Source: an uncultured Verrucomicrobiota bacterium (lineage in GTDB: Bacteria; Verrucomicrobiota; Kiritimatiellia; RFP12; UBA3636). Taken from it: a DNA stretch of 47,951 bases. Within the stretch, counting starts at the first letter, position 1; each line of letters opens with the position of its first letter. The position numbers and the translations under genes were made by a program. Below the pieces are notes generated by a model. It saw only the letters and a program-made list of their open reading frames with translations, did no database searches and was not told the DNA's origin. The stretch covers positions 1 through 47,951 of the forward strand of contig CAMNCG010000004.1 of assembly GCA_946534105.1 (NCBI GenBank), in the 5' to 3' direction. Shown here one piece after another: positions 3 to 18,578 of this stretch.

Positions 3-3000
3 AACAGCTACCACGACATCTTCGAGGGTTCGCTTGCCGCGAACAACGCGCTGACGGGCGAACGGGCGGTGTCCGTGGGCCTTGAGGCGCTCGATCCTTC
101 GATATCGCGCGAAGGCGTGATCAACGGCGGTACGCCGACGGTGCTGAAGCTCGCGTTCGGTGAGAACGATGATAACCGAATGGTGAAGTTCGACATTCCG
201 GCCGGAGTTCGTGTAACGTATGGCTTCGGTTTCATGCCGGGAGGGACGCGCTCCGTCGCGTCCGGCTCGGTCGTCGCGACATCCGACGGCGCGATGTTCC
301 GGGTCCCTGATGGCGCGATGGACGTGTACGTCATGCTTGAAGCGGACGCGACGGCGACCTACGCCCTCTCGACTGAAACAACCAAACTGGCGATTACCGG
401 CGTGACGCCCTCGACGCTTCCCTCCAGTGGCACGACGACGCTCACCATCGCTGGCGCCGGCTTCGGCGACGAGAACGCGGTGACGCTGTCGAATGCAAAC
501 GATAGCTATCGCGTGCAATCGATTGCCAAGGACGCCAGCGGCAACCTCATCGCCACCGTCGACTGCGCCGCGCTCACGGCGGGACAGATCTACGACCTTG
601 ATGTTTCAGGAGGGTCGCCGTCCTCGGCGACCGCAACCCTGCCAAGCGCGGTGAGTGTCGCCGCCGTGAAGGGCGAAGGCAAATTCTGGGCGCGGCTCGT
701 CGTGCCGGATTCCGTTCGCGAAGGTCGCAAGGTCTCATGCGCCATCGAATACGGCAACAGCGGCAACGCCGACTTGCTGGCGCCGGTTCTTCAGGTTTCC
801 ATGGACGGAACGGGGTCGCTGGCGTATCTCAATGGGCTTTTCGGCCTCAAGGTGTTGCAGTTCATTGCCGCTGGAGAAGCATCCAGCGCGGGCGTTCTTC
901 GTCCCGGTGCTTCTCATCTCATCAGGTTTGAGATGCTGGCCGGGTCGAGCAATCAAATTTCGCTTTCAACGTCTGTTAATAATGATTTCACCCCTGTAGG
1001 ATGGGAAAATTCAGAAGACTATCTGACGGCAATGTCTTTATCGGCTACTCGCATTGGTCTTTGTGGGCGGGATCCGACAGACTACTACGCGACCATGCGC
1101 CTAGTGTCTCGCATGTTAAATCACGAAGCCGTGTCGGTGGTGTCGGGAGTTGTCTCGGATGGCGCGGAAACGGCAATCGATGGGTTGCTTCTTGAACTAT
1201 CCAATGAAGCGAAAAAATACAATACGCTCACCGATTCTGAAGGCACGTTCTTGTTTGACGGAGTCGCGCCAGGGAACTATGAGATCGTTGCACCATTTCT
1301 TGGACTGACGCTAGGCGTAGTGAACGTTGTATCGTCAGAAGACCTTTGCGGTCTGGCCTATTCGATTGGAACCGCTCAAGGAACGAAAGTTCGTGTTGTT
1401 TCGCCAGAGGAAATTCCCAGTGATTTGATTGTTACAGCGCTTCCCATGGGCGAAAACTTTAGCAATGTCGTTTTCGCAGTAAGGACTTCGGATTGCGAAT
1501 TTGTGTTCAAGGGGTTGACGGACGGATTCTATGATATCCGTGGCATTGCCGAAGGGGTTGCAGCGGAGACTGTCGCCGAAATAGCCGATGGTGGTGTCGT
1601 TGGAATGCCGTTGCTATTGGAACTGGAACAGACTTTTTCCGTAACTGGTCATGTGGAAAACGTCGCGAATGCGGAACTTGTCACGGTTTATGCGGTGGGT
1701 TCGGCTCATGTGTCTAAAACAACGTTGAACGAAGACGGATCCTTTGTCTTTGACGGGTTGGCGGCGGATGATTATGAATTCCAAATAGTGGGCGACGAAT
1801 CGGCTTCCTATGAACCGATCTCCATGGCCGTGCCTGTGGAGGACAACGCGGCAGGGCCTGTGTTCGAGCGATTGAATGCCTTGGGGCGCAGCACCTTGTC
1901 CTTGGCGCGGACGGCATCGGCGAAGGCGGTGGATTACAATCGGTATCTCTTTTTTGAAGTGCGCCAGGTCGGACGGCATTTAAAGGAACAGGCGGATTTG
2001 CTTTATCGCCTGAAGACTGTCCCTCTTCCGGAAGTGCGATGCGCGGAGAACATGGCGACTTATGCGCATTATTGTGAGTTACGTAGGGAATTTGAACTCT
2101 GGAAACAGCATTACGAATTCATGCTTGGCTTGTATAGCCAAACAAAAGGCTCGGATGCTGTCAAAGAAAGCGTATTCCTTGTAGCAAAAGCGCTTGCGGC
2201 ATTGGCTGATTTGAAAGGGACAGGGGATTTGTTCTCCTCATACGTCGCTGAGGCCGAAAATCTTATTGATGCCGCACTCGCTGCAGAAATTGGGTTTAAT
2301 GCCGAAACGGTAGCAAACATCACAGTGTCGCTCAGAACAATGCTTACCTCTGGGCAACACGCCATTGATGTGATGACAAGTATCGACTTCGAGAACGATT
2401 CATTTTTAGTTCTTTCAGAAAAGATTGCGTCTATTTTGGCAGATCTTTCTGACATCTACAAGTCGTTTGAACGAATAAAAAGCTTCGGAGATATGCTTGA
2501 AGCGGCGGCCGGCAAGCGGAAGGCGAACACACGTCTGGTGGCAATGGCTCGTGACTACAAGTGGCAGCACACTCGGGCGCTTGGATTTGTTGGTTTCGTG
2601 AGGTCATGCCTTTCACTATATAAGTCGGCGAAAAAGGCGACGGAAACCGTGTTTTCCTACTTTAACGAAATCGAAGGTCTTCGTCGTGCCGCCAATTTCT
2701 TCCAGCCAATCGTCGACAATTATTCGAAACTAAAGTTTGATGGATACCATGATGATTGCATGAATCCCGTTCCGAACCCGCCTTATCCGCCTTCACAGAC
2801 CCTGTTCCCTTCCGTCCCACGTTCTTGCGACCCGAACGAGATGGTCGGCCCGCTGGGCGTAGGCGATCCGGAGATGGAGCGGCAGCTGGTGCCGGGCGAG
2901 TGGGCGACCTACACCATCTACTTCGAGAACCAGACGAACGCGACGGCGGCGGCGCAGGAGGTGTATGTGTCACAGGCTCTGGATGAGAACCTCGACTGGT

Positions 3001-4448
3001 CCACGTTCGAGATGTGCGAAGTGGCCTTCGGCGACCAGCTCGACCTTGGGCTGGCGGGCAGGAAGAACGGTTCGAGTGAGGCGACGATGACGGGGACGAA
3101 CCTCCTCGTGCGGACCGAGCTCGCGCTCGACGAGACGACCGGTCTGGCCATCTGGTATCTCCGCATCGTCGATCCCACGACGGACACCGGTTGGCCCAAG
3201 GACATCCTTGCCGGCTTCCTGCCGCCGAACGACCCTGAGACGCACTGCGGCGAGGGCCACATCACCTACCGCGTGAAGGTGCGCGATGACGCGGAGACTG
3301 GGGCGCGGATCGACGCCAGCGCGACGATCGTGTTCGACTACAACGACCCGATCGAGACCGATCCGGCGTGGTGGAACACGGTGGGGGCAGTCGCGGAGGC
3401 GATGCCCGTTTACCGGTTCTACTCGAAGAACTACAAGGGGCACTTCTTCACGGTGTCGGAGGGCGAGATGTGGACGATTCGCAACACGAACCGGAACTGG
3501 TCGTTCGAGGGGACGGCATACATGGCGTTCACGAACCAGGTGAACGGCACGGTCCCGCTCTACCGGTTCTACTCGAAGGGATACCGGGGCCACTTCTTCA
3601 CGATCGACGCCGACGAGGCGGAAGTCGTGAAGAAGAACCGGAACTGGGAGTACGAGGGCGTCGCCTACTACGTCTATCCCCAGGAGGTCGATGGTTCGGT
3701 TCCGGTCTTCCGGTTCTGGAGCGACCGCTACCGCCACCACTTCTACACCATCGACGAAAACGAAAAGACTTACCTTGAACAGCACGATCCCAACTGGAAG
3801 TTCGAGAACATCGCCTTCTGGACGCTCCCGGCGGAACCCGCGGAGGGCGGCGTGAAGTCGCTGAAGAAGTCGGTCTCGTCTGCGGCGGTCGCGGCGGCAG
3901 GGGAGGAAACGCGGACGGGAGGCCGCCTCCCCGGCAACGGTTCAAGCGAGGCGGCGGAGTCCGGATCCTCGCTTCGCACCGCCATGCGCGCGGACGCTTC
4001 GTCGGTGGGTGCTACCGCCGGAGACGAGTGGCTTGCCGACGCCGCGCCGTGGACGCTCTGGACGCGCGATGGAACGCCAATCCAGCGCGACGGCGCGACC
4101 GAGTTGGGGGCGATTGTCGTCGAGTCGCGCCCGGATGCGCCCGACGCGGCGGAACTCGCCGCCGGCGCGGACAGCGAATTCGACGCGGAGGATGCGAACG
4201 GAAGCCTGGCTCCTGAAACTCGCGAACCGATCCAACCCGGCTTCCTCCGCCTTGCGCTCCCCGACGGGTCGTGGAACGCGACGCTCTGGAGCGCGACCGA
4301 AGGCACGGTGTCGGAAGAGCCGGCCGAAGGGTCCTTCGACTTCGACCTGCCCGCGATGGGCGTCTGGCACTGGCTGCGGATCCGGGATGCGGCGGAGGAA
4401 AACGCGCCGGACGACTTCTCGCTCTGGCTCCGGGCGACGGAGAATTGA
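3..4448 (+). CDS. Large secreted/surface multidomain protein, 5'-partial (TIG/IPT-like, carboxypeptidase-regulatory-like, 'SCDPNEMVGP...IVFDYNDPI' conserved-repeat domain, three DUF5648-like repeats, shared C-terminal domain)
   Basis: Frame is open from base 3 (NSYHDIFEGSLAANNALTGER before the listed start at 69), so the gene begins upstream of the window. Motifs: ITGVTPSTLPSSGTTTLTIAGAGFG (TIG-like); VSGVVSDGAETAIDGLLLELS...LFDGVAPGNYEI (regulatory-like); VYRFYSKNYKGHFFT repeats. Confidence 0.85.
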   Translation, partial: NSYHDIFEGSLAANNALTGERAVSVGLEALDPSISREGVINGGTPTVLKLAFGENDDNRMVKFDIPAGVRVTYGFGFMPGGTRSVASGSVVATSDGAMFRVPDGAMDVYVMLEADATATYALSTETTKLAITGVTPSTLPSSGTTTLTIAGAGFGDENAVTLSNANDSYRVQSIAKDASGNLIATVDCAALTAGQIYDLDVSGGSPSSATATLPSAVSVAAVKGEGKFWARLVVPDSVREGRKVSCAIEYGNSGNADLLAPVLQVSMDGTGSLAYLNGLFGLKVLQFIAAGEASSAGVLRPGASHLIRFEMLAGSSNQISLSTSVNNDFTPVGWENSEDYLTAMSLSATRIGLCGRDPTDYYATMRLVSRMLNHEAVSVVSGVVSDGAETAIDGLLLELSNEAKKYNTLTDSEGTFLFDGVAPGNYEIVAPFLGLTLGVVNVVSSEDLCGLAYSIGTAQGTKVRVVSPEEIPSDLIVTALPMGENFSNVVFAVRTSDCEFVFKGLTDGFYDIRGIAEGVAAETVAEIADGGVVGMPLLLELEQTFSVTGHVENVANAELVTVYAVGSAHVSKTTLNEDGSFVFDGLAADDYEFQIVGDESASYEPISMAVPVEDNAAGPVFERLNALGRSTLSLARTASAKAVDYNRYLFFEVRQVGRHLKEQADLLYRLKTVPLPEVRCAENMATYAHYCELRREFELWKQHYEFMLGLYSQTKGSDAVKESVFLVAKALAALADLKGTGDLFSSYVAEAENLIDAALAAEIGFNAETVANITVSLRTMLTSGQHAIDVMTSIDFENDSFLVLSEKIASILADLSDIYKSFERIKSFGDMLEAAAGKRKANTRLVAMARDYKWQHTRALGFVGFVRSCLSLYKSAKKATETVFSYFNEIEGLRRAANFFQPIVDNYSKLKFDGYHDDCMNPVPNPPYPPSQTLFPSVPRSCDPNEMVGPLGVGDPEMERQLVPGEWATYTIYFENQTNATAAAQEVYVSQALDENLDWSTFEMCEVAFGDQLDLGLAGRKNGSSEATMTGTNLLVRTELALDETTGLAIWYLRIVDPTTDTGWPKDILAGFLPPNDPETHCGEGHITYRVKVRDDAETGARIDASATIVFDYNDPIETDPAWWNTVGAVAEAMPVYRFYSKNYKGHFFTVSEGEMWTIRNTNRNWSFEGTAYMAFTNQVNGTVPLYRFYSKGYRGHFFTIDADEAEVVKKNRNWEYEGVAYYVYPQEVDGSVPVFRFWSDRYRHHFYTIDENEKTYLEQHDPNWKFENIAFWTLPAEPAEGGVKSLKKSVSSAAVAAAGEETRTGGRLPGNGSSEAAESGSSLRTAMRADASSVGATAGDEWLADAAPWTLWTRDGTPIQRDGATELGAIVVESRPDAPDAAELAAGADSEFDAEDANGSLAPETREPIQPGFLRLALPDGSWNATLWSATEGTVSEEPAEGSFDFDLPAMGVWHWLRIRDAAEENAPDDFSLWLRATEN

Positions 4449-4583
4449 TTCAGAACCGTGTCATGAAAATGCCGCCGCGTTGCAACGGCGGCTGGAACAC
4501 CGTGCGCACGGAACCTTTTGGGTGTAGAATGGACTCCCAAAAGGGCAACGCCGCTTTTCACCCGCCACCGTGAGGAACCAACC

Positions 4584-7565
4584 ATGAAACATGACATTCG
4601 GATGTCCGACATGCGATGGTTCCGAAAGATTGCTCTTTGCGGGATGGTCGCTCTCTCGGCCCGCGGAACCGAAATTTCTCCGGAAGAGGCCGGAACCGCC
4701 GTTCAAAACTGGGCGGACCGGGGGTTTTCCATGGGAAAGCTTTCCGGACGAACCGTGGCGTCCGCCGAAGCGCTTTCGGACCCGGAGACCGGCGCGGCGT
4801 TCCGAATCGTGAAATTCGATGGCGGCGGATTCGTCGTGACCACCGCGGACGATCGCGTCGATCCGATCGTGGCGTTTTCCGAAACCGGAGACGCCCTGCG
4901 TCCGGACGACGGAAATCCGTTCTGGGCGCTCGTCCGGGGCAACGTCGCCGCGCGCGAGGCCGCCGCGGGAATGGCCCGGTCCGGTGACGGGGCCGTCCGG
5001 TCCCGCAAGCGGGTTCTCTCCGGTCCGGACTCCTCCCCGATGCCGACCGCGTCGCAGCGCCGTTGGGCGCAACTTCTGGATCGCGCGCCGGACGGCGAAG
5101 CCGCCGCCCTGCGAAAACGGGGCGCCGTTTCAGGCCGTTCCTCCGTTTCCGACATCCGCGTTGATTCCTTCGTCGCATCCCGATGGGGACAATCGACGGT
5201 CGGCCGGAAAAACTGCTGGAACGCCTGCACGCCGAACCACGATTACTGCGGATGCGTCGCCACGGCGGTTGCCCAGGTCATGCGGTATTGGCGGAAACCG
5301 GACGGCCCGGTCGAAGCAAAATCGCAAGTCTGCAGGGTGCAGGGCGAAAACAAACCCCGGCTGTTCACGATGTACGGGGGAACGTACGACTGGGACGCCA
5401 TGCCGCTCGTCCCGACGACCGCCGCGATGCCGACGGACGCCCAATGCCTTGAAATCGGAAAACTCCTGTACGACATCGGCGTCGCCGTGAAAATGGAATG
5501 GGGTGACGACGGAAGTCTTGCGAATCTCAATTCGGCGGCTTTCGCGCTGAAAGAGGATTTCGGATACGAAAGCGTCGTCAGTCTCCTGTACGACGCCGGA
5601 TACTACGACTGGTCGCTGGCGGAATTCGCAAAGGCGGTGATCCCGAACTTGGACGCCCGATGCCCGGTCGTGCTGGGCATCGAAAACTCCGAGTACGGAC
5701 ACGCCGCGGTCGCCGACGGATACGGATATTCCGACGGCGATTTCTTCCTCCACGTGAATTTTGGCTGGACGGGAATTTCCGACGCCTGGTACTGTCCCCC
5801 CGACCTCGAGGAATTTACGACGATCACCGACGTGCACTGCAACATTTTTCCCGAAGCGTCCGGAACCCTGGTCAGCGGCCGGGTTCTCGACGCAAGCGGT
5901 TCTCCGGTGTCGGGAGCGTCCGTGTCGCTTGTGCAAAACGGAAGAACCGTGGCCTTCGACCAAAAAACGGACGACAAGGGCATCTACGCGTTCATCGTTC
6001 CCTCCACGGGCGTCTGTTCGATCCGGGCGGCGTTTCGGGGCTCGACCGCGGCTGTGTCGGTCACCCCCGGAAAAACGGTTTCGATGGACATCATCGACCG
6101 CGACGGAACCTACTACCAGATGGCGTGCGCGATCGGAAACCGCCATGGAAACGACATCGTGCTTCCGGACGCGCCGGGGGAATCTACGGCCAGCGGCCTC
6201 TTCTGGCACGAAGACCGCGATTCGGCCGTCGCCGCGGCCTTGCGGGAAAACAAGCGCATTTTCCTCGTTGCCGGACGGAACGGGGACCCGGCGACCAGCG
6301 CCGTCCGGTTCTCGTCCTGCGAAGATGAAACCGTGCGGGCGTTTCTCACGGCGGAATTCGTCGCATGGTACAACGACCTCGACGAACGGGGGGCGGAAAC
6401 GTCGGAATACGTGCATTCGTCCGGTTCCGGCGGTTTGCCGCTCCTGTGCATTCTGGAACCCGGCGCCATGGATTCCGTCTCGGGCATGACGAGCGGATTC
6501 AAAACCGCGGCCGAGCTTCTGGCGTTTCTTTCCATGCCGACCCCTCCGGCCTCTCCCGTCTACCGCTTCTACTCGAAGAACTACAAGGGCCACTTCTTCA
6601 CCATTGACGAGGACGAGATGTGGACGATTCGCAACACGAACCGGAACTGGTCGTTCGAGGGGACGGCGTACAGGGCCTTCACGAACCAGGTGAACGGCAC
6701 GGTCCCGCTCCACCGGTTCTACTCGAAGGGCTATCGCGGCCACTTCTTCACGATCGACGCGGACGAGGCGGAAGTCGTGAAGAAGAACCGAAACTGGAAA
6801 TATGAGGGCGTTGCCTACTACGTCTATCCGCAGAAGGTCGATGGTTCGGTTCCGGTGTTCCGCTTCTGGAGCAAAGGCTACCGGCACCACTTCTACACGA
6901 TCAACGAGTCGGAGAAAAATACGCTTATCGCCACCAATCCCAACTGGGCATACGAAGGCGAGGCGTTTTACGCGCTCCCGGCGGAAACCGCAGAGGGCGG
7001 CGTGAGGTCGCTGAAGAAGTCGGTCTCGTCTGCGGCGGTCGCGGCGGCAGGGGAGGAAACGCGGACGGGAGGCCGCCTCCCCGGCAACGGTTCAAGCGAG
7101 GCGGCGGAGTCCGGATCCTCGCTTCGCACCGCCATGCGCGCGGACGCTTCGTCGGTGGGTGCTACCGCCGGAGACGAGTGGCTTGCCGACGCCGCGCCGT
7201 GGACGCTCTGGACGCGCGATGGAACGCCAATCCAGCGCGACGGCGCGACCGAGTTGGACGCGGTAGTAGTCGAGTCGCGCCTGGACGCACCCGATGCGGC
7301 GGAGCTGCGGTCCGCGGAAACGGCGGAGGGTGACGCTCTTTTGGCGGAGAAGCCGCCAGTTGAACTGAGCCTGCGCCTGTCTGGCGCTCCCGCCATGCGG
7401 AACGCAACTCTGTGGAGCGCATCGGACGGCACTGTGTCGGAGGATGACTTTGACGGAACGCTGGACTTCGACCTTCCCGCGACCGGCGTCTGGCACTGGT
7501 TGCGCGTCGCGGACGATTCCGGCAACGAGTCGATCTCCGTCTGGCTTCGGGCGACGGCGGACTGA
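4584..7565 (+). CDS. Secreted C10 family (streptopain-like) cysteine peptidase with regulatory-like domain, thioredoxin-like segment, three DUF5648-like repeats and shared C-terminal domain
   Basis: Start chosen at ATG 4584 (MKHDIRMSDMRWFRKIALCGMVALSARG). Pro-region 'AFRIVKFDGGGFVVTTADDRVDPIVAFSETG'; catalytic-type 'NHDYCGCVATAVAQVMRYW'; His region 'GHAAVADGYGYSDGDFFLHVNFGWTG'. Confidence 0.85.
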   Translation: MKHDIRMSDMRWFRKIALCGMVALSARGTEISPEEAGTAVQNWADRGFSMGKLSGRTVASAEALSDPETGAAFRIVKFDGGGFVVTTADDRVDPIVAFSETGDALRPDDGNPFWALVRGNVAAREAAAGMARSGDGAVRSRKRVLSGPDSSPMPTASQRRWAQLLDRAPDGEAAALRKRGAVSGRSSVSDIRVDSFVASRWGQSTVGRKNCWNACTPNHDYCGCVATAVAQVMRYWRKPDGPVEAKSQVCRVQGENKPRLFTMYGGTYDWDAMPLVPTTAAMPTDAQCLEIGKLLYDIGVAVKMEWGDDGSLANLNSAAFALKEDFGYESVVSLLYDAGYYDWSLAEFAKAVIPNLDARCPVVLGIENSEYGHAAVADGYGYSDGDFFLHVNFGWTGISDAWYCPPDLEEFTTITDVHCNIFPEASGTLVSGRVLDASGSPVSGASVSLVQNGRTVAFDQKTDDKGIYAFIVPSTGVCSIRAAFRGSTAAVSVTPGKTVSMDIIDRDGTYYQMACAIGNRHGNDIVLPDAPGESTASGLFWHEDRDSAVAAALRENKRIFLVAGRNGDPATSAVRFSSCEDETVRAFLTAEFVAWYNDLDERGAETSEYVHSSGSGGLPLLCILEPGAMDSVSGMTSGFKTAAELLAFLSMPTPPASPVYRFYSKNYKGHFFTIDEDEMWTIRNTNRNWSFEGTAYRAFTNQVNGTVPLHRFYSKGYRGHFFTIDADEAEVVKKNRNWKYEGVAYYVYPQKVDGSVPVFRFWSKGYRHHFYTINESEKNTLIATNPNWAYEGEAFYALPAETAEGGVRSLKKSVSSAAVAAAGEETRTGGRLPGNGSSEAAESGSSLRTAMRADASSVGATAGDEWLADAAPWTLWTRDGTPIQRDGATELDAVVVESRLDAPDAAELRSAETAEGDALLAEKPPVELSLRLSGAPAMRNATLWSASDGTVSEDDFDGTLDFDLPATGVWHWLRVADDSGNESISVWLRATAD

Positions 7566-7582
7566 TGTGGCGGTGATGGTGC

Positions 7583-7603
7583 GGCCCGCGCGGCGCGCGG
7601 GCC
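7583..7603. repeat. REP-like palindrome copy 1 (ggcccgcgcggcgcgcgggcc + ctacc)
   Basis: 21-nt perfect palindrome around a central base, shortly after a DUF5648 gene stop. Confidence 0.7.
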
Positions 7604-7624
7604 CTACCAGACGCGGCGGCTCTG

Positions 7625-7933
7625 CTATTCGCTCCAGCGCGGGCCGAAGTGGGCCGCAATTCTCGCCGGTCCGAAACGGTCGTCGAGAACTGCTTTTACG
7701 ACGACGTCCTCGCCTTCGACATCGTAGTAAATGGAAAACGGAAAGTGCGGGACGCTCGCGCGGTGGTGCCCGAACCGAACCGGATGGATTCCGGCGGTAA
7801 TGACAAGGCCGGAGAACGCCTTGTCAACGTACTCCAGAAAATGGTCAACAACCCACAGCCCAGCCTGCGCGTAGAAATCCTGCGCCTCGGCCAGATCGAA
7901 TTCGGCAAGGGCTGTGATCCGTATCCGCTTCAC
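7625..7933 (-). CDS. RelE/ParE-type toxin
   Basis: Translation from GTG at 7933: VKRIRITALAEFDLAEAQDFYAQAGLWVVDHFLEYVDKAFSGLV...HPVRFGHHRASVPHFPFSIYYDVEGEDVVVKAVLDDR; typical ParE/RelE pattern, 1 nt after the antitoxin stop. Confidence 0.8.
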   Translation of the reverse strand: MKRIRITALAEFDLAEAQDFYAQAGLWVVDHFLEYVDKAFSGLVITAGIHPVRFGHHRASVPHFPFSIYYDVEGEDVVVKAVLDDRFGPARIAAHFGPRWSE

Positions 7934-7934
7934 G

Positions 7935-8162
7935 TCAGAGAGCGGCTCTGCGTGCCTCAAGCCGCGCCTTCGCCTCGCCCCAGTCGAAGACAGGGATCTT
8001 GTTCTCCGCGTAGAGCCGGTCGCGACGCTCAAGTTCGCGGCCGTGCCATGACGGCGGCTCGTAGCCGCCTGCATCCGCCTCCAGAGAGGTCCATAGATAG
8101 TCCATGGCCTGCACCTTTTCGGCGCGGCTCATTTTGTCGATCGAGTCCAGAAGTGTCGGCAT
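7935..8162 (-). CDS. Addiction-module antitoxin-like small protein (75 aa)
   Basis: MPTLLDSIDKMSRAEKVQAMDYLWTSLEADAGGYEPPSWHGRELERRDRLYAENKIPVFDWGEAKARLEARRAAL; resembles the 'putative addiction module component' family; directly upstream of the toxin. Confidence 0.75.
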   Translation of the reverse strand: MPTLLDSIDKMSRAEKVQAMDYLWTSLEADAGGYEPPSWHGRELERRDRLYAENKIPVFDWGEAKARLEARRAAL

Positions 8163-8201
8163 GTTCAAACTCTTTCCATTGTGTCCCGTTGACGGAGACG
8201 C

Positions 8202-8230
8202 ATCATAGCACCGCGGCCCGCCGGTGGCAA
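8202..8230 (-). promoter_or_regulatory. Sigma70-like promoter for the TA operon (TTGCCA-17-TATGAT)
   Basis: Minus strand TTGCCA (8225-8230), 17-nt spacer, TATGAT (8202-8207). Confidence 0.5.
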
Positions 8231-8254
8231 TCATAAATCGAGGCGCGAAAGCCG

Positions 8255-8293
8255 TTGCGCCGGGTTTTCGTGTCTGCTAGAATCCGCGCCATG
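8255..8293 (+). promoter_or_regulatory. Orphan promoter relic TTGCGC-17-TAGAAT followed by decayed 'ATGGAACGGTAA...'
   Basis: TTGCGC 8255-8260, TAGAAT 8278-8283, ATG 8291; shares a 25-nt identical core with 13806-13830. Confidence 0.5.
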
Positions 8294-8422
8294 GAACGGT
8301 AACATCGCGGCCCATCCCTCTGCTATGATCCGCCCCGTCCCGGAACGACAATGCTGTGTTTCGCGCTTGGGGAATGGTCCAGACTGATTACAAACCCCAA
8401 GGAGAAGAATTTGACAAATCCC

Positions 8423-11400
8423 ATGAAACACGCAATTCTTTCAACAATCCTATTCTTCACAGTCCTTCCGTTCTCGATGGCTGACTCGGATTTTTCCGGC
8501 TCGCCATTGTCATCCCTTTTCATTTACGGGAATGACGGGAAAACGAAAGTGAGCTTCACGAAAAGCAAGCCAAGCGGAACGTTGGACGGGACCGGGCTCA
8601 CAGGAACGGTTTCCAGCGGCGGCGACCACTGGATTGTCAATATAACCGGCGGGGTGCTGTACGGATCCATCTGGACGAAATGGGGGGTGGAGATCAACAT
8701 CTCAGGAACGCAAGTCGGCCTTTCAAATAGCGCGAGTGGGAAAACGGCGGTTTACGGTGGCAGTGGCGTCCGCATCTGTGGTCCTGGAATGCTCCACATC
8801 GATCAATATGCCAATCAACCGGCAATTAACGGAGGCGATGGGAACGTTGCGCTGGCGCAGGGAGCCGTCGTGGGCGTCAATTGTCTTAATGGTCAGCACG
8901 CCATTGAGGGAACAGGTGTCCGCATCCTTTTGTCCTCACTTCATGTTGGCAGCACAGAAGGCATAGGCATTTACTGCGGGGGGGACGGTTTGAGCATTGG
9001 CGAATCAATCGTTTCGGTCGTTTCGGCCAAGGCGGCGGTATACATCCGGAGCAAAGGCGCATTTACCTCCACGATGAGTTCTGTCCATCTGACTTCCGCC
9101 ACCGGGTCCGCCATCCAGTCAGGCTCGGACGTCATACCTGGCGGAAGTTCCATTTCGTTCGTCAATAGTGTGTTCTGCGCGCTTGGGGCGAAACACGGCA
9201 TCCAATGCACACTTGGCGGAACGGCCATGCCCGTGTTCTTCAACAATGTCGTCGGCGTCATCGCCGGCAATGATTGCGGCATATACAATTCCGCAGCCAT
9301 CGAAGTGTCGGGCGGTTCGACGAAGCTTTCCATTGCAGGGAACATGTCAGGATCCCATTCCGGCGAAATATCCGGCGTAAATGTCCTTGCCGGTGACACG
9401 TCGTCCGGACAGGCAATCCAGATGTATTCGCCGAGGAAAACGCTTTACTACCAGGAAGCGGGTTCCGTCAAGCTCTTCAGCCCCGGAACCGTCGCCCTCG
9501 TTTCCGCGACGAACATCGTCGTCGGCGGTTCGCTGGCAATCGACCACAAGCCTTCCTACGGCGACTTCCAGACGCTCTTCACCTGGCAAGGCGCTATCTC
9601 CGCCACGGAAATTGTCGTCGGCCGGAACCTTTTCCAATCGGATGCCATTTACGCGGACTTCGACATTGCCCAGTCTTTTTCCGCGATTTTGCCCTCATCG
9701 GCAGTTCTGTTCGCGACTGACTCCGCAAAGGCTTCGACTGGCATCCGTTCCGATGTCACATACGTGACTGGCGGCAAGGTTTCCGTCAAGGCGGCCGGAA
9801 CCGGCATTCTCGTTGGCGGCCGTAATTCCGACTTTGGATTCCTGCGCATCACAGGCGGAAAAGTGTCCGTTGATTCTGACATGGTTGGAGTGGCGGATCG
9901 CAATGCGGCCAGCGGAGGCGCCCCGTCGACACTGGATTCGGATTACTACGTCGAACTGAACGGCGGACTCCTTTCCGCAAAGGGCAAGCTTGACGGCATC
10001 CTGACATGCGGCGGAATCTGGATGGATGGCGGAACTTTCGAGGCTGCGGCCACGGGCGGCTATGCGGCCGAGACGATTTCAGCACCCCCCGGACTGCGCG
10101 GCTATGCTCTGAGCGCCAACAACGGCCTATATGTCAACGGCGGCTCGTTCCTCGCGACTTCCGGGACATTGAGGACGACGCCCCGCACCTATTCCGACCA
10201 CGGCTTCGCCGCAGTCCACCCTTGCGACCTTGCCATTTCCGGTGCCAGTTCAGACAGCACAGTCACCATCACGGACATGGTTCCGTCATGGTATGGCGTA
10301 AACGACCTCTATCCCGTCAACGGAAAACTCCGCTTCTGGCTGCCCCTCGGCGCGGCGTCGCTGCAGTGGAACGGAACTTCCTACAAGGCGGGCGACAGCG
10401 GGAACGTCGTCGCCGGGAACAATGTCTTCAAGGCGGTGGGAACAACAGGAAAAACGCTCTCCTCGATTTCCGTTTCCGGCCCGGTTTCCGTGGCGTCGGG
10501 GGCGTCAGCAACATACACTTGCACGGCGACCTACTCCGACGGCAGCACCGCAATTGTAACGCCCGTCTGGTCTCTCTCGTCCGGTACGGCCTACGGCAGC
10601 ATAGATACAGCGGGCTCGCTTACGGTCAATGCCTCTGCGACGTGCGGGGTCGTGACTGTCCGGGCGAATTATGGCGGAAAAACCGCAACCAGGACGGTAG
10701 AAATCTTGAATGCGGGCAATTCTGCACCAACTTTCAAAAGCGTATTCCCGGCCGGCGATTCGCTGTCAATGAAAACAGGAGAAACACAAGAGTTTTCGAT
10801 CTCCGTTTTCGATCCGGATGGCGACAATCTGTCGATCCTATGGGGCTGGGTTGACATCGACACCGGGAAATATGGCTTCTGCGGCGATGACACGGAATGC
10901 TCGTTCGTTCCCGATGCCGAAGGACATTACAACGTTGAAGTTTACGTCTATGACGGACACGACTACGCCTACAAGGGATGGAGCGTGACCGTCATCCGAA
11001 AAGGAGCCGATTGGTACGTGGACAAGGCTACGGGAAACGATTCAAATGACGGCAGAAGCTGGTTGACGGCTAAACGCGACATACAGGCCGCAATTGACGC
11101 CGCTTCGTCGGGCGACCGCATTTTCGTTGCCGACGGAACCTATGCGCCGATCCAGACGGTAGGGAAATTGCTCAGCATAGAATCGGTTAACGGCGCCGAC
11201 AAAACCATCATCAACGCTGGCTTTTCCAGAGACCAAATTGACAATTGGAACGGATGGGAAGACGTCGAAGGTCGGTGTGCAACGCTTGTCTCCGAGGATG
11301 ATGTGGATTTTCTTTCCGCTCTTGTCGAGAAATTCGAGACAATAACGACTCTCAAGGGGTTTACGCTCCGCAACGGATTCCAGACAGGAGACGGCGGAGG

Positions 11401-13738
11401 CGCGTTCGGCGGGAAACTCGTCGATTGCGTCTTGAACAACAATGGTTGCACGGGATGCGGAGGAGGGGCCTATCAAAGCATTCTCGTCAACTGTGACGTG
11501 TCGGACAACGCATCCTACGTCTGTGGTGGCGGAGCGTGGGGGGGGATCGAGTTCCGATGCCGCATTTCTGGAAACAAGGCGGGACGCCAGAATTCCACCA
11601 GCGCTGCCGGTGGCGGGGGCTTGGCCTACGGTTTTGCCGTGAACTGCACCATCTCCGGCAATTCGTTTGTCGCACCGACATATGGAGGCGGAGGGTGCTA
11701 CGAGACGGATTTGTTCGATTGTGTCATCGACGGAAATTCCGCTTCTTATGGAGCGGCCATGATGGGTGGATCGGCTTGGCGTTGTGACATCCGCAGCAAT
11801 TCGGGCGTCTATGACATCATTTCGCCCGGTATGGCTTCTCCGACGTTATTCAACTGTCTTGTTCGAAACAACACCGCGAGTCGTTCGTCTTCGGCAAGCT
11901 ATCCCGTTTCCGAAATCTATGCATCAGGGGGGGGCGTTTTCAACTGCACTTTCTACGGAAATGTCGCCGAATCCATTGCCGGTTCGGGGGGGGAATTCAA
12001 AAACTGCATCGTATGGGGCAACTCGTGCAGCAAGAAAGTTTTTGGAACCTACGCGAACGGCATCCACAACAATTGTATTCAAGACAACAGTCATTCTGGA
12101 GCTTCGGATTCCAGCGGGAATTTTACGGCCAACCCCCTTTTCGCGAATGCGACGGCGGGCGATTTCCGTCTTTCCGCAAATTCTCCTTGCATTGATTCGG
12201 GAAACAATCTGTTCACGGAAACAGGGGCGAACTATACGACTTTTTCCGTTTTTCGCCGCTGCAACGAATCCGGGACTCTTCCTGCCGCATTCCAGTACTA
12301 TGACCTTCTCTATGGACTGGTGGATTTTGACGGCAATCCTCGCATTTCCGGCAAAACCGTCGACATCGGAGCATTTGAGTTTGGTGCTTCCGAAAAGACA
12401 TACGTCGCATTGAACCATCAAGGTGGATTTCCACCAGATGATTATCCTTTTTCGGCCACGATTGAATCCGGAAAACGAGTTGACATCGCTCCCGGTTGGG
12501 CTGATTCCAGAATGGATGGGGTTTATTGCACGAGCGCGAAAATCGGCGAACCTATGCCAACCATTTCCGTTCCGATGCGCGAGGGCTACGTTTTTCATGG
12601 ATATTGGACGGGTAAAAATGGGACAGGAACGCAATACTATGCAGCGGACGGAACGAGCGTACGCAATTGGGACTTGATAGACCCAACGACGCTTTACGCC
12701 AAGTGGACGCCTCCTACGACGTCCCTTCCCGTCTACCGGTTCTACTCGAAGAACTACAAGGGCCACTTCTTCACCATTGACGAGGGCGAGATGTGGACGA
12801 TTCGCAACACGAATCGGAACTGGTCGTTCGAGGGAACGGCTTACATGGCGTTCACGAACCAGGTGGACGGCACGGTCCCGCTCTACCGGTTCTACTCGAA
12901 GGGCTATCGCGGCCACTTCTTCACGATCGACGCGGACGAGGCGGAAGTCGTGAAGAAGAACCGGAACTGGGAGTACGAGGGCGTCGCCTACTACGTCTAT
13001 CCCCAGGAGGTCGATGGTTCGGTTCCGGTCTTCCGGTTCTGGAGCGACCGCTACCGCCACCACTTCTACACCATCGACGAAAACGAAAAGACTTACCTTG
13101 AACAGCACGATCCCAACTGGAAGTTCGAGAACATCGCCTTCTGGACGCTCCCGGCGGAACCCGCGGAGGGCGGCGTGAAGTCGCTGAAGAAGTCGGTCTC
13201 GTCTGCGGCGGTCGCGGCGGCAGGGGAGGAAACGCGGACGGGAGGCCGCCTCCCCGGCAACGGTTCAAGCGAGGCGGCGGAGTCCGGATCCTCGCTTCGC
13301 ACCGCCGCGCCGTGGACGCTCTGGACGCGCGACGGAACGCCGATCCAGCGCGACGGCGCGACCGAGTTGGGGACGATCCTCGTCGAGTCGCGCCCGGATG
13401 CGCCCAATGCGGCGGAACTCGCGGGTTCCGCGGAGGATTCGCGTGACGAAGGCCATGCGAAGTCCGTCGCGGAAACCCGGCATCCCGAAACTTCCGACGG
13501 GGATCCGGACCTTTGCCCCTTCCGTCTGATTCTCCCCGCCGGCTCGTGGAAATCTCTCCTGTGGAGCGCCGAAAGGGGCGTGATCGCGGAAGAGGAGTCG
13601 GACGGCGCGTTCGACTTCGACCTGCCCGCGACCGGCGTCTGGCACTGGCTGCGAGTCTCGCCGGATGGTTCGGATGGTTCAGATGGTTCGGATGATCTGA
13701 ACACGTCTGCCTTCTCCGTCTGGCTGCGGGCGGAGTAA
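8423..13738 (+). CDS. Very large secreted protein: beta-helix/polymorphic right-handed repeats, Ig-like/PKD-like segments, InlB-B-like repeat, three DUF5648-like repeats, shared C-terminal domain
   Basis: Start ATG 8423 with signal peptide MKHAILSTILFFTVLPFSMADS; 'WYVDKATGNDSNDGRSWLTAKRDIQAAIDAASSGDRIFVADGTY' typical of right-handed beta-helix proteins; 'YVFHGYWTGKNGTGTQYYAADG' InlB-B-like; VYRFYSKNYKGHFFT repeats. Confidence 0.85.
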   Translation: MKHAILSTILFFTVLPFSMADSDFSGSPLSSLFIYGNDGKTKVSFTKSKPSGTLDGTGLTGTVSSGGDHWIVNITGGVLYGSIWTKWGVEINISGTQVGLSNSASGKTAVYGGSGVRICGPGMLHIDQYANQPAINGGDGNVALAQGAVVGVNCLNGQHAIEGTGVRILLSSLHVGSTEGIGIYCGGDGLSIGESIVSVVSAKAAVYIRSKGAFTSTMSSVHLTSATGSAIQSGSDVIPGGSSISFVNSVFCALGAKHGIQCTLGGTAMPVFFNNVVGVIAGNDCGIYNSAAIEVSGGSTKLSIAGNMSGSHSGEISGVNVLAGDTSSGQAIQMYSPRKTLYYQEAGSVKLFSPGTVALVSATNIVVGGSLAIDHKPSYGDFQTLFTWQGAISATEIVVGRNLFQSDAIYADFDIAQSFSAILPSSAVLFATDSAKASTGIRSDVTYVTGGKVSVKAAGTGILVGGRNSDFGFLRITGGKVSVDSDMVGVADRNAASGGAPSTLDSDYYVELNGGLLSAKGKLDGILTCGGIWMDGGTFEAAATGGYAAETISAPPGLRGYALSANNGLYVNGGSFLATSGTLRTTPRTYSDHGFAAVHPCDLAISGASSDSTVTITDMVPSWYGVNDLYPVNGKLRFWLPLGAASLQWNGTSYKAGDSGNVVAGNNVFKAVGTTGKTLSSISVSGPVSVASGASATYTCTATYSDGSTAIVTPVWSLSSGTAYGSIDTAGSLTVNASATCGVVTVRANYGGKTATRTVEILNAGNSAPTFKSVFPAGDSLSMKTGETQEFSISVFDPDGDNLSILWGWVDIDTGKYGFCGDDTECSFVPDAEGHYNVEVYVYDGHDYAYKGWSVTVIRKGADWYVDKATGNDSNDGRSWLTAKRDIQAAIDAASSGDRIFVADGTYAPIQTVGKLLSIESVNGADKTIINAGFSRDQIDNWNGWEDVEGRCATLVSEDDVDFLSALVEKFETITTLKGFTLRNGFQTGDGGGAFGGKLVDCVLNNNGCTGCGGGAYQSILVNCDVSDNASYVCGGGAWGGIEFRCRISGNKAGRQNSTSAAGGGGLAYGFAVNCTISGNSFVAPTYGGGGCYETDLFDCVIDGNSASYGAAMMGGSAWRCDIRSNSGVYDIISPGMASPTLFNCLVRNNTASRSSSASYPVSEIYASGGGVFNCTFYGNVAESIAGSGGEFKNCIVWGNSCSKKVFGTYANGIHNNCIQDNSHSGASDSSGNFTANPLFANATAGDFRLSANSPCIDSGNNLFTETGANYTTFSVFRRCNESGTLPAAFQYYDLLYGLVDFDGNPRISGKTVDIGAFEFGASEKTYVALNHQGGFPPDDYPFSATIESGKRVDIAPGWADSRMDGVYCTSAKIGEPMPTISVPMREGYVFHGYWTGKNGTGTQYYAADGTSVRNWDLIDPTTLYAKWTPPTTSLPVYRFYSKNYKGHFFTIDEGEMWTIRNTNRNWSFEGTAYMAFTNQVDGTVPLYRFYSKGYRGHFFTIDADEAEVVKKNRNWEYEGVAYYVYPQEVDGSVPVFRFWSDRYRHHFYTIDENEKTYLEQHDPNWKFENIAFWTLPAEPAEGGVKSLKKSVSSAAVAAAGEETRTGGRLPGNGSSEAAESGSSLRTAAPWTLWTRDGTPIQRDGATELGTILVESRPDAPNAAELAGSAEDSRDEGHAKSVAETRHPETSDGDPDLCPFRLILPAGSWKSLLWSAERGVIAEEESDGAFDFDLPATGVWHWLRVSPDGSDGSDGSDDLNTSAFSVWLRAE

Positions 13739-13748
13739 CGGCGCGCGC

Positions 13749-13775
13749 GAGGGCGGCTCGGCGATCCGCCCTCGC
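13749..13775. terminator. Hairpin downstream of the 13738 stop
   Basis: cgagggcgg-ctcggcgat-ccgccctcg, 9-bp perfect stem. Confidence 0.5.
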
Positions 13776-13783
13776 CGTCAAAT

Positions 13784-13823
13784 CCGGCGCAACGGCTTTC
13801 GTGCACGAAAGCCGTTGCGCCGG
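13784..13823. repeat. 40-bp perfect palindrome overlapping a promoter -35
   Basis: ccggcgcaacggctttcgtgcacgaaagccgttgcgccgg; the right half contains TTGCGC (13815-13820) of the TTGCGC-17-TACAAT promoter. Confidence 0.8.
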
Positions 13824-13850
13824 GTTTTCGCGTCTGATACAATCTGCGGC

Positions 13851-13958
13851 ATGGAACAGTACTTCAACATTGCTGGGCCATGCGTTCCCGGAAAACACTA
13901 CATGATTCCCGTCCTTGAGCGTCTCTTCGAGTGTATGACCTCATGGACAGGGCGATAG
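13851..13958 (+). pseudogene. N-terminal remnant of an AAA-family ATPase gene
   Basis: MEQYFNIAGPCVPGKHYMIPVLERLFECMTSWTGR*; 'YFN(I/T)AGPxxPxxHYMxPxLERL' recalls the N-terminus of a widespread bacterial ATPase family, but it stops before any P-loop. Confidence 0.6.
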
Positions 13959-13963
13959 TTGAG

Positions 13964-15466: not shown

Positions 15467-15559
15467 GCCTTCTCGACTCCACCACCCACAAATACCCCAA
15501 CTACTTCACTCCTCGACACGCCAACCGACCAACGGACCTGACCACCCACTCGCAACCCC

Positions 15560-16321: not shown

Positions 16322-16354
16322 AGCACCACCTGGAGCGACGCGAGGAGGTTTGCC

Positions 16355-17365
16355 ATGAGAATAGCAAGAAGATGGCCGTCATCTGTTGCCTTGGCGGCGG
16401 CGACGCTTGCCATGTGCATTCCGGCGGCGGCGATGCCACTCGGTCTGCGCACCGCGATGTGGGGCATGGAGGCTGAAATACGTGGCGACATGATCGAGCC
16501 CCTTTCCATCCACCGTTTCTACTCCAAGGCGTACAAAGGGCACTTCTTCACGATTTCGGAAGAGGAGAAGGATGACCTCATCGCGCACAACCCGAACTGG
16601 AAGTACGAGGGAATCGCCTACTACGTGTATCCGGACGAGGTCGAAGGCTCCGTGCCGGTGTTCCGCTTCTGGAGCAAAGGCTACCGCCACCACTTCTACA
16701 CGATCAACGAGTCGGAGAAAAATACGCTTATCGCCACCAATCCCAACTGGGCATACGAAGGCGAGGCGTTTTACGCGCTCCCGGCGGAAACCGCCGAAAG
16801 CGGCGTGAAGTCGCTGAAGAAGTCGGTCTCGTCTGCGGCGGTCGGCTCGCGCGGAGTCCTCGCCTTGTCGGCGGCGGATGGCGGCGCGACAGGAGCCGGC
16901 CTCGGCGCGACGCTCGGCGGCGGCGACGCGGCAGGGTCCGGCCTTCGTGCGACACTCGGCGGCGGTCGCGGAGCGACCTCGCTGCCGGACGAGACCTCGT
17001 CTCTGACCGAATGGACGCTTTCGGCGGAGGACGGCACGGCGATCGCCGAGCCGGGAACGACGGAAGTCGGCGGGATTCTCGTCGAGACGCTCCAGGACGT
17101 CCCGGATTACGCGGAGTTCGAGGAGGACGCCTCCCGTGCGGAGCGCCAGACCGTTTCCCTGCATCTGGTTCTTCCCGCCGGCGTCTGGCGTGCGAAGCTC
17201 TGGAGCGCGGTGGACGGCGAGGGCGACGAAGAGAGCGCGGAAGGAGCGCTGGACTTCGAACTGCCCGCGACCGGCGTCTGGCACTGGCTGCTGGTTGCGC
17301 CGGAAGATGCGGAAAATCCGGATTCTCCGGCCTACTCCCTGTGGATCCGCGCGACGGCGGATTAG
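16355..17365 (+). CDS. Secreted protein with two DUF5648-like repeats, Gly/Ala-rich linker and shared C-terminal domain
   Basis: SD-like gaggagg before ATG 16355; signal peptide MRIARRWPSSVALAAATLAMCIPAAAM; IHRFYSKAYKGHFFT and VFRFWSKGYRHHFYT; C-terminus DFELPATGVWHWLLVAPEDAENPDSPAYSLWIRATAD. Confidence 0.85.
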   Translation: MRIARRWPSSVALAAATLAMCIPAAAMPLGLRTAMWGMEAEIRGDMIEPLSIHRFYSKAYKGHFFTISEEEKDDLIAHNPNWKYEGIAYYVYPDEVEGSVPVFRFWSKGYRHHFYTINESEKNTLIATNPNWAYEGEAFYALPAETAESGVKSLKKSVSSAAVGSRGVLALSAADGGATGAGLGATLGGGDAAGSGLRATLGGGRGATSLPDETSSLTEWTLSAEDGTAIAEPGTTEVGGILVETLQDVPDYAEFEEDASRAERQTVSLHLVLPAGVWRAKLWSAVDGEGDEESAEGALDFELPATGVWHWLLVAPEDAENPDSPAYSLWIRATAD

Positions 17366-17498: not shown

Positions 17499-18578
17499 TT
17501 ACCGGCGATGGGACGAGAGGCGGCGGATTGCGGCGAGGGCGAGGCCAGCCGGGGCGACGAGAAGGGAGCCGAGACGAAACGAGAGCGACTTGCGCAGCAG
17601 GCCCACTTCGCGCTCCCGCGCGTTCTTCTCTTCGACGAGTTTCGCGAATTCCCGTTCGGAACGCGTTTTGAGCATCGTGTTCAGCCAGAAGGAATCCAGC
17701 GGCGGCAGGTCCGCCGCGCGGCGGCGTTCCGCGTCGTCGACGCGACCCCAAAGATACCGGACCGCCCCAACGGCCATTTTCGCGGCAATCGCCGCGGCCC
17801 GCCTCTCCTCGTCGTGCTCCGGCGGCTGATTCCAGCCAAATCGGAGGATTTCCCGCGCGACGACGGCGCAGCTCGCGACGTTGCGGAACTTCGGAGGCGA
17901 GGAAGCGTAGTCGGAATCTTCCCGGATTCGGTATCGGTGGCATGTCTTTCCGACGGCCGCCGCCCGCTTCGCGTTCACGAGCGAGAGAAAGGTGAACAGC
18001 AGGTCTTCCTGCTTGATGTCCTCGCGAAAACGGATGCCGCGTTCGGCCACGTAGTCTCGACGAAGGATGTAAAGCCAGACGGGCACGTCGTATTCGCCGG
18101 CGGCCGCCATGTCGAGAAGCAGCGCGGGGCCGGTCCTTGGCGCGGAAAAGGCGTTGGAGCGCGGGTGCCCGCGTTCCTCCTTGGGGCAGCGCTCCTTCAG
18201 GGCGGCACTGTCGAATGCGGTTTCGCTTCCGAAGAACAGAATGTCCAGATTATCCCGCCTGGCCTTCTCCAGAAGCGTTTCCAGCGCGCCGGGAAGGAGC
18301 ATGTCATCGCTGTCGAGGAAATGGACGTAGTTGCCCGAACAGGCGTCGAATGCGGCGTTGCGCGCCGCGCCCTGCCCGCGATTGGCGGCGTGGATCACGC
18401 GAACGCGGCGGTCCGCCGCCGCCCGAGCGTCGAGAATCGCACCGGAGCCGTCGGTGGAGCCGTCGTCGATGCAGACCACCTCCAGGTCCTTCACGGACTG
18501 GCCGAGGACGGAATCGAGGCACGCGTCGAGCCACGGCGCCGAGTTGAAGACGGGAATCAAAATCGAAATTTCAGGCAT
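17499..18578 (-). CDS. Glycosyltransferase family 2
   Basis: MPEISILIPVFNSAPWLDACLDSVLGQSVKDLEVVCIDDGSTDGSGAILD...VHFLDSDDML. Confidence 0.92.
   Translation of the reverse strand: MPEISILIPVFNSAPWLDACLDSVLGQSVKDLEVVCIDDGSTDGSGAILDARAAADRRVRVIHAANRGQGAARNAAFDACSGNYVHFLDSDDMLLPGALETLLEKARRDNLDILFFGSETAFDSAALKERCPKEERGHPRSNAFSAPRTGPALLLDMAAAGEYDVPVWLYILRRDYVAERGIRFREDIKQEDLLFTFLSLVNAKRAAAVGKTCHRYRIREDSDYASSPPKFRNVASCAVVAREILRFGWNQPPEHDEERRAAAIAAKMAVGAVRYLWGRVDDAERRRAADLPPLDSFWLNTMLKTRSEREFAKLVEEKNAREREVGLLRKSLSFRLGSLLVAPAGLALAAIRRLSSHRR

What the first reader, a model, noticed from the sequence alone, without database searches (positions are those of the whole stretch)
3400..13400. Mosaic near-identity among cassettes implies gene conversion or recombinational shuffling
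The linker block at 3858-4130 and 7018-7256 is essentially identical over ~240 nt and recurs at 13195-13370, whereas the N-terminal domains are unrelated. Breakpoints are mosaic: the third DUF5648 repeat plus following bases of gene 2 (6855-6990) match gene 4 (16663-16797) nearly exactly (SKGYRHHFYTINESEKNTLIATNPNWAYEGEAFYALPAET), yet gene 2's linker matches genes 1 and 3. Genes 1 and 3 share another third repeat (SDRYRHHFYTIDENEKTYLEQHDPNWKFENIAFWTLPAEP).
Basis: seen in the sequence. Interest (0 to 1): 0.65.

Follow-up and report, generated by a model that had tools for sequence, protein, structure and literature searches.

The report
Gene conversion in glycan-binding surface proteins
A row of otherwise unrelated secreted-protein genes in an uncultured Verrucomicrobiota-group bacterium keeps copying stretches of one shared C-terminal module onto each other, and that module is probably a grip on the cell's own surface sugar coat, because a form of it is also fused to the pump that exports that coat.

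Summary
Four genes in tandem (3-17365) have unrelated N-termini but share a C-terminal module: DUF5648 repeats, a disordered linker and a beta-sandwich end domain. Inside the module the identity is mosaic. g1 and g3 share 372 exact bases, g1 and g2 share 251, and g2 and g4 match at 139 of 140 over repeat 3. Yet the end domains of g1, g2 and g3 are only 59-60% alike, while g2's is 98% identical to a gene in another species of the genus. Trees of neighbouring segments reject each other (AU p 2e-62 and 1.5e-5). A second species shows the same pattern (584 exact bases between two genes whose N-termini are 34% alike). Identity tracts inside old paralogues, diverged on both sides, mean gene conversion plus some exchange between species. 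The process is known (Helicobacter babA/babB).

The newer part is what is homogenised. DUF5648 also forms the C-terminal domain of an O-antigen exporter ATPase (Wzt) in 7 of 11 genomes of this genus; the secreted genes sit among polysaccharide genes in three species; published DUF5648 toxins target O-antigen. I infer that the module tethers proteins to the cell's own glycan. That is untested, and short-read assembly could inflate exact identity.

The parts
3..4448 (+). g1: 5'-truncated at contig edge; TIG, carboxypeptidase-regulatory-like and DUF7619 domains, then 3 DUF5648 repeats + linker + end domain
4584..7565 (+). g2: signal peptide, Spi inhibitor, C10 peptidase, carboxypeptidase-regulatory-like, then 3 DUF5648 repeats + linker + end domain
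8351..13738 (+). g3: signal peptide (likely start 8424), long beta-helix-like protein, choice-of-anchor Q and List_Bact-like repeat, then 3 DUF5648 repeats + linker + end domain
16355..17365 (+). g4: own Shine-Dalgarno and signal peptide, 2 DUF5648 repeats + different linker + end domain
3612..3983 (+). tract A in g1: 372 nt identical to g3 12935-13306 (end of repeat 2, repeat 3, first half of linker)
12935..13306 (+). tract A in g3
3857..4107 (+). tract B in g1: 251 nt identical to g2 7007-7257 (linker)
7007..7257 (+). tract B in g2
6852..6991 (+). tract C in g2: repeat 3, 139/140 identical to g4 16655-16794
16655..16794 (+). tract C in g4
7308..7562 (+). tract D: g2 end domain, 249/255 identical to the G003 gene of another species; high identity starts near 7297 and ends about 20 nt past the stop
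13304..13369 (+). g3 linker with a 60-nt in-frame deletion relative to g1 and g2
4050..4445 (+). end domain of g1 (no Pfam or NCBIfam model; predicted beta-sandwich); counterparts at 7200-7562, 13313-13735, 17012-17362
13784..13823 (.). perfect 40-nt palindrome followed by a TACAAT promoter-like box; half copy plus TAGAAT box at 8248; near-identical element after a cassette gene in G008
17499..18578 (-). GT2 glycosyltransferase next to the array; start of a glycosyltransferase / glycerophosphotransferase cluster reaching about 37 kb

Best explanation
The region is a tandem array of secreted proteins with unrelated N-terminal working parts and one shared C-terminal module: DUF5648 propeller, disordered linker, beta-sandwich end domain. 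Homologous recombination between the directly repeated modules copies tracts of roughly 130-370 nt from gene to gene (gene conversion). It occasionally deletes or adds a whole 150-nt repeat, and occasionally imports tracts from related species. Shown by sequence: the mosaic, its bounds, incompatible segment trees, a parallel case in a second species, and a one-repeat deletion between close relatives. Inferred: that RecA does it, that it is ongoing, and what it is for. Inferred function: the module binds the cell's own exported surface polysaccharide and holds the proteins on the cell; homogenisation would keep every protein of the array fitted to the same glycan that the Wzt-DUF5648 exporter recognises.
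For: Mosaic and tests. The linker is predicted disordered (pLDDT 20-30), so 251-372 nt of exact identity, third positions included, is hard to ascribe to selection. End domains of the same three genes are 59-60% alike, so the genes are old paralogues and only the inside was overwritten. Second species G008: 584 nt exact between two C10-peptidase genes whose N-termini are 34% identical. G001 and G003 orthologues differ by one exact 150-nt repeat. RecA is present. The g2/G003 end domain is 98% identical against recA 80-85% and rpoB 75%. Function: a Wzt-type ATPase (NCBIfam Wzt/RfbE E 7e-62, below the equivalog cut-off) carries DUF5648 in place of the usual carbohydrate-binding domain in 7 of 11 genomes of the genus. 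In G008 the array directly follows wzm and wzt-DUF5648. On own contig C26 and in G003 the secreted DUF5648 genes lie among RgpF and glycosyltransferase genes. The end domain occurs only in DUF5648 genes, 12 of 12. A borderline choice-of-anchor domain stands just before the module in g3. Literature: DUF5648 C-terminal domains of BSAP-2 and BSAP-3 target O-antigen (PMC12853789); the Wzt C-terminal domain recognises O-antigen (PMC9445017).
Against: All genomes used are MAGs, probably short-read, and exact repeats of 372 or 584 nt exceed usual read and k-mer lengths, so copies may have been collapsed to a consensus. The Wzt DUF5648 is degenerate and not homogenised with the others. Several genomes outside the genus have secreted DUF5648 proteins without a Wzt fusion. 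Co-occurrence within the genus is not significant (secreted genes in 4 of 7 genomes with the fusion, 0 of 4 without; Fisher p about 0.1, my arithmetic). No ligand has been shown for any of these domains here, and the published toxins bind other cells' O-antigen, not their own.
Confidence: 0.6

Rival explanations
1. Recent duplication and domain shuffling: the whole C-terminal module was copied onto different N-terminal genes not long ago, and no repeated conversion took place.
For: N-termini are unrelated; array size varies between species (one gene found at the locus in G003, at least 4 in the window, 7 in G008).
Against: A recent copy of the whole module would also make the end domains alike. 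They are 59-60% alike among g1, g2 and g3, while the linker is 97-100%. The g2 end domain groups with another species (99/100) and a g1-g2-g3 clade is rejected there (p 1.5e-5).
Confidence: 0.12
2. Assembly artefact: a short-read metagenome assembler collapsed similar paralogues, or strain variants, into one consensus, so the exact identity between copies is artificial.
For: The exact repeats (251, 372 and, in G008, 584 nt) are longer than usual reads and k-mers (general knowledge of assemblers); all genomes are fragmented MAGs.
Against: The switch in g2 between repeat 2 and repeat 3 is bracketed within about 60 nt by unique differences, and repeats 1-2 keep scattered differences with exact runs of 79 nt or less when g2 is compared with g1 or g3. 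The g2/G003 tract is between separate assemblies. Three assemblies show related mosaics, and tracts end at different places in different pairs.
Confidence: 0.1
3. Strong purifying selection keeps the module identical without recombination.
For: DUF5648 repeats are structured, conserved domains.
Against: Third positions are as identical as the rest; the most identical part is a linker predicted to be disordered; the same segments differ at 9-30% from G003; selection would not make trees of adjacent segments conflict.
Confidence: 0.03
4. Function rival: the proteins are secreted antagonists aimed at the surface glycans of competing strains, as the DUF5648 toxins of Bacteroidales are; recombination changes targets instead of keeping them matched to self.
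For: BSAP-2 and BSAP-3 carry DUF5648 C-terminal domains and target O-antigen of other strains (PMC12853789); genes lie beside glycan loci; one tract is 98% identical to another species.
Against: No MACPF or other known toxin domain was found in g1-g4. The module is made uniform across one genome, which suits one shared ligand. The Wzt fusion points to the cell's own glycan.
Confidence: 0.25

Closest known systems
Helicobacter pylori babA/babB and homA/homB concerted evolution (PMC3960876, citing Pride & Blaser 2002)
   Same: Paralogous surface-protein genes; 3' segments alike within a genome while 5' segments diverge; intragenomic, probably RecA-dependent gene conversion.
   Different: There the whole genes are homologous. 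Here the N-termini are unrelated, the converted part is an internal stretch of a C-terminal module, and the distal end domain escapes conversion.
Bacteroidales secreted antimicrobial proteins with DUF5648 C-terminal domains (BSAP-2, BSAP-3; PMC12853789)
   Same: DUF5648 as C-terminal domain of exported proteins; O-antigen as target; three-bladed beta-alpha propeller.
   Different: Those are MACPF pore-formers anchored as lipoproteins. Here the N-termini are a C10 peptidase, beta-helix and other domains, with a further end domain after DUF5648, and no MACPF.
Wzm-Wzt O-antigen exporters with a C-terminal carbohydrate-binding domain (PMC9445017)
   Same: ATPase of the Wzt/RfbE type next to an ABC-2 membrane protein, with an extra C-terminal domain.
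   Different: The extra domain is DUF5648 and not the jelly-roll domain of characterised Wzt proteins; ligand untested.
Choline-binding and SLH-type anchoring of Gram-positive surface proteins (general knowledge, not tested)
   Same: Many unrelated secreted proteins share one repeat module that would bind the cell's own surface polymer without a covalent bond.
   Different: Different fold and organism group; binding here is inferred only.

Membership tests
Gene conversion / concerted evolution between paralogues | Tracts of near-identity within a genome, bounded on both sides by higher divergence | tested here: met
   linker 97-100% against end domain 59-60%; N-termini unrelated
Gene conversion / concerted evolution between paralogues | Segments of one gene give conflicting trees | tested here: met
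   repeat 1 joins g1, g2, g3 and rejects g2+G003; end domain joins g2+G003 and rejects g1+g2+g3
Gene conversion / concerted evolution between paralogues | Paralogues within a species more alike than orthologues between species in the converted segment | tested here: met
   linker 97-100% within, 89-94% to G003; G8b/G8e identical over 584 nt although their N-termini are 34% alike
Gene conversion / concerted evolution between paralogues | Events observed between strains, RecA dependence | not testable with these tools
   one genome per species; RecA gene present
DUF5648 (PF18885) | Profile match above the curated cut-off | tested here: met
   93-127 bits, cut-off 25
BSAP antibacterial toxins | MACPF domain | tested here: not met
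   no PF01823 in g1-g4
Wzt with usual carbohydrate-binding domain (applies to the C26 gene, not to the window genes) | Wzt-type ATPase beside ABC-2 permease | tested here: met
Wzt with usual carbohydrate-binding domain (applies to the C26 gene, not to the window genes) | Known Wzt C-terminal carbohydrate-binding domain family | tested here: not met
   only ABC_tran-type and DUF5648 matches at relevant scores
Site-specific inversion system (shufflon type) | Inverted repeats and a dedicated recombinase nearby | tested here: not met
   no inverted repeat pair of 60 nt or more, all copies in direct orientation; no recombinase among the proteins scanned (not every ORF was scanned)
Diversity-generating retroelement | Reverse transcriptase with template and variable repeats | tested here: inconclusive
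   no reverse transcriptase among the window proteins scanned, but not every ORF was scanned and the contig ends at g1
Type IX secretion C-terminal sorting domain | T9SS translocon (SprA) in the genome and a matching C-terminal profile | tested here: inconclusive
   no SprA, but no control genome rang either; no T9SS sorting profile; end domain has no significant PDB match

The most novel reading that the evidence does not exclude
DUF5648 is a general O-antigen grip. One species uses a degenerate version inside its exporter (Wzt) to recognise its own glycan, and homogenised versions on its secreted proteins to tether them to that glycan. Gene conversion and import from other species would keep all proteins of the array matched to the glycan as it changes: a Gram-negative counterpart of choline-binding or SLH anchoring with a built-in updating process.
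Probability: 0.3. Interest if true: 0.78.

Novelty: new variant of a known kind. Interest (0 to 1): 0.52.

Why it matters
Gene conversion among bacterial surface-protein genes is known. A case where only an internal C-terminal stretch is homogenised, across genes with unrelated N-termini, suggests that the shared part has a job of its own. The Wzt-DUF5648 fusion, together with the O-antigen-targeting toxins that carry DUF5648, gives a domain of unknown function a concrete and cheap test: does it bind the cell's own O-antigen? If so, it would show how a Gram-negative bacterium can display many enzymes on its surface and keep them matched to a changing coat.

Tried and rejected
Purifying selection alone was rejected on third positions and conflicting trees. 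Inversion systems and diversity-generating retroelements: no supporting parts found. Type IX sorting: the SprA search is uninformative because no control genome rang. Structure searches of the whole module and of the end domain gave no PDB match at E<=0.001; the end domain is only Ig/FN3-like in outline. One match in the viral structure library (A0A8S0I430, E 8e-6) has no name and was not followed. An empty-site comparison of the G003 locus in G001 failed because matches there are scattered short pieces. The pair of DUF5648 genes in G028 and the G166 array are not homogenised (64-81%). A first attempt to hand in this report failed its format check.

Full report
What is there. The window is the whole of contig C4 of a 3.93-Mb MAG, 87% complete, in 359 contigs. 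Named relatives that match best are uncultured Verrucomicrobia and Lentisphaerae MAGs. Four genes on the + strand share a C-terminal module. g1 (3-4448, cut by the contig edge) has carboxypeptidase-regulatory-like and DUF7619 domains. g2 (4584-7565) is a C10 peptidase with its inhibitor propeptide. g3 (8351-13738) is a long beta-helix-like protein. g4 (16355-17365) is little more than a signal peptide plus the module. The module is three DUF5648 repeats (two in g4), a linker, and an end domain of about 115-140 residues that no Pfam or NCBIfam model recognises. AlphaFold2 gives a confident DUF5648 domain (pLDDT about 90), a disordered linker (20-30) and a confident beta-sandwich end domain.

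The mosaic. Exact matches are g1/g3 372 nt, g1/g2 251 nt, g2/g3 127 and 79 nt, and g2/g4 107 and 32 nt with one mismatch between. By segment: repeats 1-2 are 91-97% alike among g1, g2 and g3. In repeat 3, g1 = g3 (100%) and g2 = g4 (99%), with 70% between the classes. In the linker, g1, g2 and g3 are 97-100% alike. In the end domain, g1, g2 and g3 are 59-60% alike, while g2 is 98% identical to one gene of G003, another species of the genus. High identity to G003 starts near 7297 and stops about 20 nt past the stop codon.

Why this is recombination. (1) Runs tests give p<=5e-5, the floor of 20,000 permutations. (2) Linker and end-domain divergence differ at p 5e-36 to 2e-26 for pairs of g1, g2 and g3. 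(3) Trees: repeat 1 puts g1, g2 and g3 together (99/99) and rejects g2+G003 (p 2e-62); the end domain puts g2 with G003 (99/100) and rejects g1+g2+g3 (p 1.5e-5); repeat 3 puts g2 with g4 (96/97). The groups were chosen after seeing the identities, so these p-values are descriptive; repeat 3 alone does not reject g1+g2+g3 (p 0.13). (4) Third positions in the predicted-disordered linker are as identical as the rest, so protein constraint is not the cause. (5) The tract is bounded on both sides by old divergence, which a fresh copy of the whole module would not show.

It is not a single case. In G008 (contig CAMVRE010000003.1) seven such genes stand in a row (7.6-32 kb). Two of them, both C10 peptidases with N-termini 34% identical, share 584 exact nt from repeat 2 through the linker into the end domain. 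Between G001 and G003, whose copies are about 92-95% alike, one orthologue differs by an exact in-frame 150-nt repeat, with the break in the motif shared by repeats 2 and 3. G166, of another family of the class, has a three-gene array of the same plan that is not homogenised. The three species of the genus share the locus: parts of the glycosyltransferase cluster next to the array align at 70-87%.

Exchange between species. g2 and G003 are 98% identical in the end domain, 91% in the linker and 89% in repeat 3. recA is 80-85% and rpoB 75% identical between the two genomes, and other genes of the locus are 78-87%. The end domain is therefore more alike than vertical descent predicts. Mis-binned contigs are a caveat.

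What the module does (inference). Own contig C26 carries an ATPase with ABC_tran and DUF5648 domains (E 4e-21 and 1.5e-15), best matched by Wzt/RfbE, next to an ABC-2 membrane protein, RgpF proteins, glycosyltransferases and a secreted DUF5648 protein. The fusion is found in seven of eleven genomes of the genus; among 338 genomes of the class, full-length strong matches were confined to this genus. In G008 it directly precedes the array. In characterised Wzt proteins this place is held by the domain that recognises the O-antigen (PMC9445017). Independently, DUF5648 is the C-terminal domain of BSAP-2 and BSAP-3, whose targets are O-antigen glycans (PMC12853789). In g3 a choice-of-anchor domain, borderline at 25.4 bits against a cut-off of 25, precedes the module. 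All 12 occurrences of the end domain in 30 genomes are in DUF5648 genes. The simplest joint reading is that the module holds secreted proteins on the cell's own polysaccharide and that homogenisation keeps all of them fitted to it. The rival is that they are aimed at neighbours' glycans. The sequence cannot decide this.

Limits. The genomes are MAGs and reads were not available. Exact repeats of 251-584 nt could be a consensus of near-identical copies. The switch from repeat 2 to repeat 3 in g2 is safer, because unique differences within about 60 nt bracket it. Only one genome per species could be searched, so movement of tracts between strains was not seen. Direction and donor of tracts are not determined. 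Co-occurrence of fusion and secreted genes in the genus is suggestive only.

Verdict. The process is of a known kind (Helicobacter babA/babB; PMC3960876). The added value is the link of the converted module to surface-glycan export, which makes a function for DUF5648 and its end domain testable.

Noticed in passing
L020 10939-12225 (own contig C26); L089, L090, L091, L096, L098; G008:C3 5250-6467: Wzt-type O-antigen exporter ATPase whose C-terminal domain is a degenerate DUF5648 triad, in 7 of 11 genomes of the genus; none of the three DUF5648 papers held in the library turned up such a fusion in the passages read.
   Followed up: partly
4050-4445, 7200-7562, 13313-13735, 17012-17362: End domain without a Pfam or NCBIfam model (WHWLRV...SLWLRA), found only behind DUF5648 in the 30 genomes searched; more distant forms end in WLRH or WLGHLRTH in other families.
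   Followed up: partly
7625-8165 (-): ParE-like toxin (E 9e-5) and, by eye, a small antitoxin-like ORF, lying between g2 and g3.
   Followed up: partly
8248-8300 and 13784-13860; G008:C3 29954-30035: A 40-nt perfect palindrome (CCGGCGCAACGGCTTTCGTGCACGAAAGCCGTTGCGCCGG; only half of it upstream) plus a TAGAAT/TACAAT promoter-like box flanks g3, and recurs behind a cassette gene in another species.
   Followed up: no
13931-15466 (+): A DUF4062 + RecG-like HATPase + winged-helix gene sits inside the array between g3 and g4 and has an SSQKSSQKSSQK repeat.
   Followed up: no
15560-16354: An LRR_5 (BspA-like) secreted protein gene lies in the same frame as g4, separated by one TAG and 33 nt; in G008 an LRR N-terminus is fused to the module in one gene (G8f).
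   Followed up: partly
L074 about 5549-5600 (G003:C157) and L075 530-560 (G001:C44): Behind the stop codon of a DUF5648 gene lies a remnant of the linker coding sequence (GGCGTGAAGTCGCTGAAGAAG), as if that gene had lost its end domain.
   Followed up: no
L133 358-11319 (G166:C135): Separate tandem array of three DUF5648 genes of the same plan in another family of the class; copies 64-80% alike, not homogenised.
   Followed up: partly
G001 contigs C17, C55, C41, C166 and others: Short pieces (30-80 nt) of the intergenic DNA around the G003 array gene occur at many places of the G001 genome, like dispersed repeats.
   Followed up: no
G008:C3 15625-16062 and 27245-27682: The variable part of two G008 end domains contains a translated short repeat (SHAESAE...), as if a small dispersed repeat had been inserted in frame.
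   Followed up: no
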